Assembly (NCBI GenBank): GCA_017557405.1
Contig: JAFYYV010000030.1
Location: 1-49,332, forward strand
From: Prevotella sp.
GTDB lineage: Bacteria; Bacteroidota; Bacteroidia; Bacteroidales; Bacteroidaceae
Reading direction: 5' to 3'
DNA: 49,332 bases
The notes under the pieces are model-generated. The model had not been told where the DNA came from and searched no databases. It was given only the letters and a program-made list of their open reading frames with translations. Below are positions 28,007 through 34,500 of this stretch, in pieces. A program made the translations under genes and the position numbers. Position 1 is the stretch's first letter. Every line of letters starts with the position of its first letter.

Positions 28007-28172
28007 TCTCAAATCTCAAATCTCAATTAAAAATAAAAGGCAACATTCACATCCCGAATTCCTCCTATAATGCTTATAACTTATTAATAATCAATAATAT
28101 ATATAATATATATAATAAAAAAGAGTAGTTGTGGGGTACCTTTAAAAAATAACTGAGATTTGAGATTTGAGA
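28007..28172. repeat. 22-bp inverted repeat built of TCTCAAA heptamers
   Basis: The arms 28007-28028 and 28151-28172 are reverse complements with one mismatch. Each is made of three TCTCAAA-type heptamers. The 122-bp interior is strongly AT-rich and includes runs of alternating AT near 28096-28120. It could fold into a long hairpin, or mark a miniature element; no target-site duplication was identified. Confidence 0.65.
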
Positions 28173-28696
28173 TTGAGAATAACATATAGCAACCTTTAAT
28201 CGTTGATAATCAATGAGTTACGTTTTTCCAATAGCACCACTTTGCCTATAACAGACCTGTAAAAGGGACTAAATGAGGCTATTTTCTCCCCTAAAAGGCC
28301 TCAAAATACGTGCTTGAGACGCTTGTTTCGATGTATTTCCCTACACTTTGAGCATATTTATGCGATTTTGAAATTCAACATTCTGCTCGCATTTGGAGGT
28401 GTTTTGTGCACAAATGGCAGTCTCGTTGCGGAAAATGGAGGTTAAAAATGCCGCTTTTCACTATTAATTGAGATAATTGTGAGACCATTTTGTAACCTTA
28501 ATGAGACGGAGATGTTGGTAAATAGCACCTCTCAAGCTCAAACGCTTCTTTTGTAAAGAAAATTATAAAATTTGGTGCCACGAGAAGGCCAACGTTTTGA
28601 AAAAATTCTTCCTCGTGGGCAAATACGCGAGTTTTGAGCATTCTTGGAAATCGTTGATAATCAGCTGTTTCTGTTTTCTTTACATTTTATAGCGTT

Positions 28697-28850
28697 GTCA
28701 AAGCTATGCAATGAGGTGGTCAAATGTATGGAATGAGCTTGTCATAGCTATGCTTTGAGGGCGTCAGATGCCACATGTAAGCGGGTCAAAACATATCTTT
28801 GAGCGCCTTAGATGCCACATGTGACAATTTCAAGTGTGGAAAATGAGGAA
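28697..28850. repeat. Seven imperfect 22-bp tandem repeats
   Basis: Units start at 28697, 28719, 28741, 28763, 28785, 28807 and 28829, exactly 22 bp apart. The first five begin GTCA, and most end with a TGAG-like block at positions 16-19. Units 4 and 6 share AGATGCCACATGT. Many units are themselves weak dyads (TCAAAxxxATxxxTTTGA). The 22-bp period is not a codon multiple and equals about two helical turns, which suits a protein-binding array better than a coding sequence or CRISPR. Confidence 0.75.
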
Positions 28851-28894
28851 ATTGGAGCGAAAAAGTCGTTTTCTTACTCCATTTTCTTCTCTAG

Positions 28895-29014
28895 ATTGAA
28901 CGGAAAAGTCAACAAGATTTTGTAAATATAAATACCAAGATTTACAATTCATTACTAAAAAAGACTATCGAACTGTTCGATGACCTTATGGAAGCGGGAA
29001 CACGGCTGGAATAA
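28895..29014 (+). pseudogene. Possible 3' remnant of a gene
   Basis: A frame open from 28895 to the TAA at 29012-29014 has no start codon upstream of its interior ATG. It translates to a protein-like, helical end (KKTIELFDDLMEAGTRLE). It may be the last 39 codons of a gene whose front was lost. No family can be named. Confidence 0.25.
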
Positions 29015-34327: not shown

Positions 34328-34353
34328 TCCCCCGATTCACAGAATGTGAATTA

Positions 34354-34442
34354 AGGGGTGCTGCTCCCTGCCCTTTTGGAAGCAGGAAGACGGCTGAGAT
34401 GATACCCTCTGACCTGATCGGGATAATGCCCGCGTAGGGAAA
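34354..34442 (+). promoter_or_regulatory. TPP riboswitch (THI element)
   Basis: The conserved core is present in order: GGGGTGC (34355-34361), GGCTGAGATGATACCC (34392-34407), ACCTGATC (34412-34419), GGATAATGCC and GCGTAGGGAA (to about 34442). These are the thiamine pyrophosphate sensing helices. It controls the TonB receptor and probably PnuT downstream, repressing them when thiamine pyrophosphate is plentiful. Confidence 0.96.
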
Positions 34443-34500
34443 AGTTTTTGTTTCACTCTCCCCTTATTCGTATTTATTTAATATTAATAAGGTATTCAAC

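What the first reader, a model, noticed from the sequence alone, without database searches (positions are those of the whole stretch)
28697..28850. Seven-unit 22-bp tandem array in a large gene-free region
Seven imperfect units lie exactly 22 bp apart, sharing GTCA at the start and TGAG near position 16-19. Units 4 and 6 share a different core (AGATGCCACATGT), so two unit types may alternate. The units lack the identity and spacers of CRISPR and the period is not a codon multiple, so a protein-binding or chromosome-organising array is a reasonable guess. It lies about 240 bp past the end of the surface-protein operon.
Basis: seen in the sequence. Interest (0 to 1): 0.7.

Follow-up and report, generated by a model that had tools for sequence, protein, structure and literature searches.

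The report
Dispersed Prevotella repeat with 22-bp array
The 22-bp tandem array is the middle of a roughly 390-bp non-coding repeat that sits in dozens of intergenic places in this bacterium's genome, and similar 22-bp arrays have multiplied in some related Prevotella species but not in others; what copies it and what binds it are unknown.

Summary
In detail: the 22-bp period at 28697-28850 beats all 1000 shuffles. But the array is not a lone site. It is the core of a dispersed non-coding element, window 28548-28934. The own genome has 33 places on 20 contigs (30 core copies, 3 array-only) and four further core copies. A related rumen genome, RUG11493, has 43 right ends. At one orthologous site two relatives have only a short, element-free gap, so the element inserts. 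Six units are conserved: [GC]TCA-N11-TGA[GC] every 22 bp, three in one orientation, then three inverted. No RNA fold is conserved beyond a 4-pair stem; no target-site duplication or autonomous partner was found. Unit-pair arrays occur in 59 of 249 sampled genus genomes, with 10 or more matches in 23, and nearly only in Prevotellaceae (75 of 76 stretches). Best reading: a non-autonomous mobile repeat, built like BrickBuilt or BOX but not shown to be either, carrying dyad-symmetric sites probably bound by a dimeric protein (inferred). A terminus-specific role does not fit the dispersal.

The parts
28548..28934 (+). core of the dispersed repeat element (387 bp)
   Evidence: aligned with 29 other own copies and 19 of 26 RUG11493 copies
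28697..28828 (+). six conserved 22-bp units; called A+, unclear, A+, B-, A-, B-
28548..28573 (+). left end of the element (family consensus nTTTTGTCAAGAAAATTCTGAATTTTGG)
28646..28672 (.). central dyad around TTGATAATCA, 83.5% of cells paired over 49 copies
28890..28934 (+). right end: TCTAGATTG block, then a short stem (28910-28925; imperfect in this copy); most copies of the family end in a T-tract, this one does not
28255..28545 (+). extra left module of the long form, present at 9 places in the genome including this one
28007..28172 (.). 34-nt inverted-repeat arms (28007-28040 / 28139-28172, 82% complementary) around an AT-rich core, further left in the same intergenic region; membership in the element uncertain

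Best explanation
The array is the conserved interior of a non-autonomous, non-coding, dispersed repeat that inserts between genes and has multiplied in this Prevotella lineage. Shown: dozens of copies per genome, near-constant length (387-388 bp), sharp ends, presence versus absence at an orthologous site, and arrays of the same kind in other species. Inferred: the six units are sites for a symmetric (dimeric) DNA-binding protein; each has TCA and TGA half-sites 11 bp apart and repeats every 22 bp, about two helical turns, so bound dimers would line up on one face of the DNA, and the two inverted halves make one large symmetric platform. Also inferred: a factor supplied in trans, not identified here, copies the element; the protein on the array either helps that step or affects neighbouring genes.
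For: 33 places on 20 contigs in the own genome and no match in 19 other genomes of that search; four more core copies; 43 right ends in RUG11493, control 0; lengths 387 or 388 bp in 25 of 30 own and 22 of 26 RUG11493 copies; the nadK / DJ-1-like site is element-free with a short gap in G006 and G011; nearest relative in the same genome for 30 of 30 own and 24 of 25 RUG11493 copies; unit consensus from 289 units and flip of orientation at the centre; unit-pair spacing 22 bp in 142 of 160 neighbour pairs in other Prevotellaceae loci; patchy abundance, 23 of 249 genomes with 10 or more matches.
Against: No target-site duplication (observed 0.61, shuffled 0.57, 201 of 500 as high), no clear terminal inverted repeats, no transposase found inside or beside the copies, so the copying step is unproven. 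In three relatives (G004, G007, G009) the alignment gap at the same site is longer than here, not shorter; I did not read those junctions. At least eight own copies share flanking DNA with RUG11493 copies, so many insertions are old or hit the same sites. No protein is known to bind the units. Dyad covariation is mixed (two of five measures not above shuffles).
Confidence: 0.7

Rival explanations
1. A host chromosome-organising or regulatory array: a dimeric nucleoid or regulatory protein binds the units, and the surrounding sequence is kept for that host function rather than being a selfish repeat.
For: Exact 22-bp phase and symmetric half-sites; type A units of like sequence recur in several species.
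Against: Very uneven abundance, most sampled genus genomes have none (190 of 249); one site clearly empty in relatives; copies lie on 20 contigs, not near one place. HU-like genes were near only 2 of 124 counted arrays, though the counting rule missed two further cases (L039, L075).
Confidence: 0.2
2. A family of small non-coding RNAs, transcribed left to right and ending at the right-end stem and T-tract.
For: The right-end stem is kept in 90.1% of cells with some G-U pairs and is usually followed by T residues.
Against: No Rfam match in the element; RNAalifold over 49 copies finds only four pairs, at the right end (likewise over 56); the simple terminator scan of the L031 copy did not report the right end.
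Confidence: 0.07
3. A minisatellite grown by replication slippage at this one place, with no wider meaning.
For: Tandem 22-bp units; two own copies are exactly one unit shorter (365 bp).
Against: The array sits in a conserved 387-bp element at dozens of places, with unit order conserved between copies.
Confidence: 0.02

Closest known systems
BrickBuilt MITE of Porphyromonas gingivalis (PMC4596501: outline with abstract, sections 5 and 8, and part 1 of section 7 read)
   Same: Intergenic, dispersed (19 copies), a tandem array without spacers between a non-repetitive leader and tail, no transposase inside.
   Different: Units of 23 nt, 1 to 22.8 of them per copy, terminal inverted repeats like those of IS5-family elements, reported only from P. 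gingivalis and P. gulae. Here 22-bp dyad units, nearly always six, inverted in two halves, no such terminal repeats.
PINSR, 188-bp repeat of Prevotella intermedia (PMC4755523: abstract and found passages, including most of section 3.4)
   Same: Non-coding, intergenic, many copies (177 and 184), Prevotella, no terminal inverted repeats, restricted to one clade.
   Different: 188 bp; its sequence is in a figure not held, so homology could not be tested.
BOX elements of Streptococcus pneumoniae (PMC3049150: found passages)
   Same: Modular: ends plus a tandem middle module; many intergenic copies; different mosaic families in related species.
   Different: Variable number of middle modules; terminal inverted repeats and target-site duplications reported; predicted RNA stem-loops. 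Sequences were not compared.
REP/BIME repeats (PMC2817692: search listing and start of abstract only; otherwise recalled)
   Same: Short palindromic units, regularly spaced, in both orientations, outside genes, many copies.
   Different: No Y1 transposase flanked by such units was found in this genome.

Membership tests
MITE (non-autonomous IS derivative) | Short, non-coding, dispersed between genes | tested here: met
   387 bp, 33 places on 20 contigs plus four
MITE (non-autonomous IS derivative) | Insertion at sites empty in relatives | tested here: met
   one site, nadK / DJ-1-like genes, read in G006 and G011
MITE (non-autonomous IS derivative) | Terminal inverted repeats | tested here: inconclusive
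   by eye in A1 a 7-bp pair TTGTCAA / TTGACAA, 3 bp from the left edge but about 20 bp inside the right edge
MITE (non-autonomous IS derivative) | Target-site duplication | tested here: not met
   56 copies, no excess over shuffled pairs
MITE (non-autonomous IS derivative) | Cognate transposase with the same ends in the genome | tested here: inconclusive
   of 31 right ends found in the own genome 27 lie at copies and 4 proved to be further copies; only Y1_Tnp was searched as a transposase family
BrickBuilt | 23-nt tandem units | tested here: not met
   period is 22
BrickBuilt | Leader and tail around the array | tested here: met
   (architecture only)
BrickBuilt | IS5-like terminal repeats GAGACC.../...GGTCTC | tested here: not met
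   copy ends read do not show them
PINSR | Sequence similarity to the 188-bp consensus | not testable with these tools
   consensus only in a figure
REP/RAYT | Y1 transposase gene flanked by the palindromic units | tested here: not met
   one Y1_Tnp match, no unit pair at 22 bp in its 3.2-kb locus; a short type B array by eye about 950 bp upstream
CRISPR | Near-identical repeats separated by unique spacers | tested here: not met
   imperfect head-to-tail units, only a few bases between dyads
Structured RNA (Rfam) | Match to a known family or a conserved fold | tested here: not met

The most novel reading that the evidence does not exclude
Prevotella has a lineage-wide system in which an unknown symmetric DNA-binding protein recognises exactly 22-bp-phased dyad arrays, and different mobile repeats in different species carry the same kind of array as their working core, so that the array rather than the element's ends is what the spreading machinery recognises.
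Probability: 0.25. Interest if true: 0.75.

Novelty: new variant of a known kind. Interest (0 to 1): 0.5.

Why it matters
Seven of 249 sampled genus genomes carry more than a hundred phased unit pairs while most carry none. That is a natural set for finding what copies such elements and what protein binds them, in an important rumen and oral genus, and the copies are candidate breakpoints for rearrangement.

Tried and rejected
HU-like genes as the cognate protein: noticed beside arrays in L039, L075 and L115. Counted: 2 of 124 arrays had one within 300 bp, 6 of 936 ORFs were HU-like. The counting rule did not see the arrays of L039 and L075, so this is a weak negative.

RAYT/REP: one Y1_Tnp match, not flanked by arrays. 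Dropped.

Promoter element donated by the ends: TAnnTTTG sites beside the ends have no fixed spacing. Dropped.

Composite transposon: two right ends face each other about 4 kb apart on C16. Both are element copies; the 721-aa ORF between them looks like DNA ligase by eye (recalled, not searched). No transposase recognised. Dropped.

Structured RNA: no conserved fold beyond the right-end stem.

A strict two-unit pattern in the own genome found nothing; BLAST did.

TTGATAATCA-like motif: own genome 101 against 30 and 25 for the reversed control; in other Prevotellaceae within 250 bp of 5 of 67 arrays against 0.8 expected. Suggestive only.

Seven paper searches in the open-licence library showed BrickBuilt and PINSR but, in the listings, no 22-bp Prevotella array.

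Full report
Observation. The seven 22-bp frames at 28697-28850 are in the sequence as described. The lag-44 and lag-22 identities here are the two highest scores in the 49-kb window over lags 10 to 60, and no dinucleotide shuffle of the intergenic region reached the array's lag-22 score (0 of 1000).

What it belongs to. A blastn search with window 28480-28920 gave 35 rows in the own genome. Two are reverse-strand matches inside other rows, leaving 33 places on 20 contigs; the other 19 genomes of that search, 11 of the same genus, had none. I fetched the 32 other places and compared them. Thirty, the window included, share a core; three (L038-L040) were left out of that alignment because only their arrays match. 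Core lengths are 387 bp in 23, 388 in 2, 365 (one unit less) in 2, and 385, 386 and 377 in one each. A right-end pattern found 31 places in the own genome (control 0); four of these were new and proved to be further copies. Seven core copies (window, L009, L010, L011, L013, L014, L019) match the window leftwards beyond the core in one piece, and L012 in a separate piece: a long form with the module at 28255-28545, which is present at nine places. In L066 that module lies beside an array without the core, so the elements are mosaic.

Relatives. A scan of one genome per species gave 76 stretches with a type A unit pair: 75 from records named Prevotella, Prevotellaceae or Hoylesella and one from Bacteroides xylanisolvens; the tool says that records very near the window's genome may be left out. 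The rumen genome RUG11493 among them (handle G257) carries the same core: 78 blast rows and 43 right ends, control 0. Over 30 own and 26 RUG11493 full copies (one a duplicate), median identity is 73% within this genome, 76% within RUG11493 and 63% between. All 30 own copies and 24 of 25 distinct RUG11493 copies have their nearest relative in their own genome. Yet at least eight own places share flanking DNA on one or both sides with a RUG11493 place (L015, L016, L018, L023, L025, L030, L037, L040); not all RUG11493 copies were compared. Of three such pairs tested, one is the best match among 25 and two rank 8 and 17. That fits gene conversion among copies, or repeated insertion at the same sites.

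Insertion. The clearest site is L031, between a nadK-like and a DJ-1/ThiJ-like gene (names by eye, recalled). Here the element lies at L031 1474-1860, 60 bp before the DJ-1-like start. In G011 the two genes are 74 bp apart and in G006 about 134-146 bp, with no unit of one mismatch or less. In RUG11493 the flanks are 12.7 kb apart; the two joints hold no such unit, and the middle was not fetched. I read the junction in these three of the 12 genomes searched. In the other relatives the alignment gap is shorter than here in G002, G003 and G005 and longer in G004, G007 and G009; I did not read these. At the window's own site the ECF sigma gene has an ortholog in RUG11493, the right-hand gene has no match, and a 39-bp match to the middle of the element (85%) lies beside the sigma ortholog, perhaps a remnant: uninformative.

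Anatomy. In 49 of 56 full copies the core reads: left end TTTTGTCAA; a variable segment; a dyad around TTGATAATCA; TTCCGTTTTCTTTACAT; six 22-bp units; a tail; TCTAGATTG; a right end with a short stem and usually a T-tract. Over 289 complete units the consensus is [GC]TCA-N11-TGA[GC]. Cores are of type A (AAAGCTATGCTTT) or B (GATGCCACATGT). Orientation is + at positions 1-3 in every copy that could be called (48, 39, 47) and - at positions 4-6 in 45 of 49, 44 of 45 and 47 of 48. Proposed dyad pairs hold in 72.6% of cells against 70.6% in shuffles (0 of 500 as high) and 32-43% when slid; the covariation score also exceeds all shuffles and the cells changed on both sides exceed 490 of 500, but the number of pairs with a double change (450 of 500 as high) and the number of pair types (499 of 500) do not. 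So symmetry is clear, covariation mixed. RNAalifold finds only four right-end pairs.

The array elsewhere. In 249 genus genomes (own included) AAGCWWWGCTT-N11-AAGCWWWGCTT with up to 2 mismatches matched in 59; 23 have 10 or more, seven more than 100, the highest 347, this one 96. The reversed control matched in 9 genomes, at most 10 times. In the 76 loci neighbouring units lie 22 bp apart in 142 of 160 cases and 44 bp in 10; 41 of 67 counted arrays have four units; 3 of 67 lie mostly inside an ORF of 150 aa or more. The surroundings differ between species by eye. A search with a whole element matched 8 of 200 genus genomes, own included, nearly always only through the array. The exception is L048 (G135), matched at the left end (88% over 32 bp), which by eye has the same layout but units built on GTAAC..GTTAC.

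How it most likely works. Shown: dispersal, near-fixed length, one clear empty site, species-specific families, exact 22-bp phase, dyad symmetry. Inferred: a symmetric protein binds the units in phase, and machinery supplied in trans copies the element. Neither factor was identified. With no target-site duplication and no clear terminal inverted repeat, I do not file it as a classical MITE; it behaves like a non-autonomous dispersed repeat.

Comparison. BrickBuilt is the nearest described analogue in architecture, differing in unit length, unit number, terminal repeats and host. PINSR is nearest in host but its sequence could not be compared. BOX is similar in modular plan. The listings of seven paper searches showed no description of this array, within an open-licence library.

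Noticed in passing
window 28007-28172; L066 about 1825-1965: Inverted-repeat arms made of short direct repeats (TCTCAAA-type here; GTTCCA-type in L066, by eye) flank an AT-rich core beside the left module. The arm sequence differs between the two loci while the arms stay complementary.
   Followed up: partly
L048 (G135, another genus genome): An element of similar layout carries a 22-bp array of a different palindromic unit (GTAAC..GTTAC), by eye.
   Followed up: no
L011 left flank versus L261 (G257:C7): 986 bp are 98% identical between the two species although other shared flanks are mostly 70-95%, and in G257 this segment lies beside a different neighbour across the repeat: recent transfer or recombination at the repeat.
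   Followed up: no
L252 (G257:C1:5600-8900): A copy truncated on its left, with about two units and an intact right end.
   Followed up: partly
L075 (G000:C16, around 298144): The only Y1_Tnp match of the genome (351-aa ORF), with an HU-like gene and a short type B array upstream.
   Followed up: partly
window 34344-34457 (+): TPP riboswitch (Rfam RF00059, 61.8 bits).
   Followed up: no
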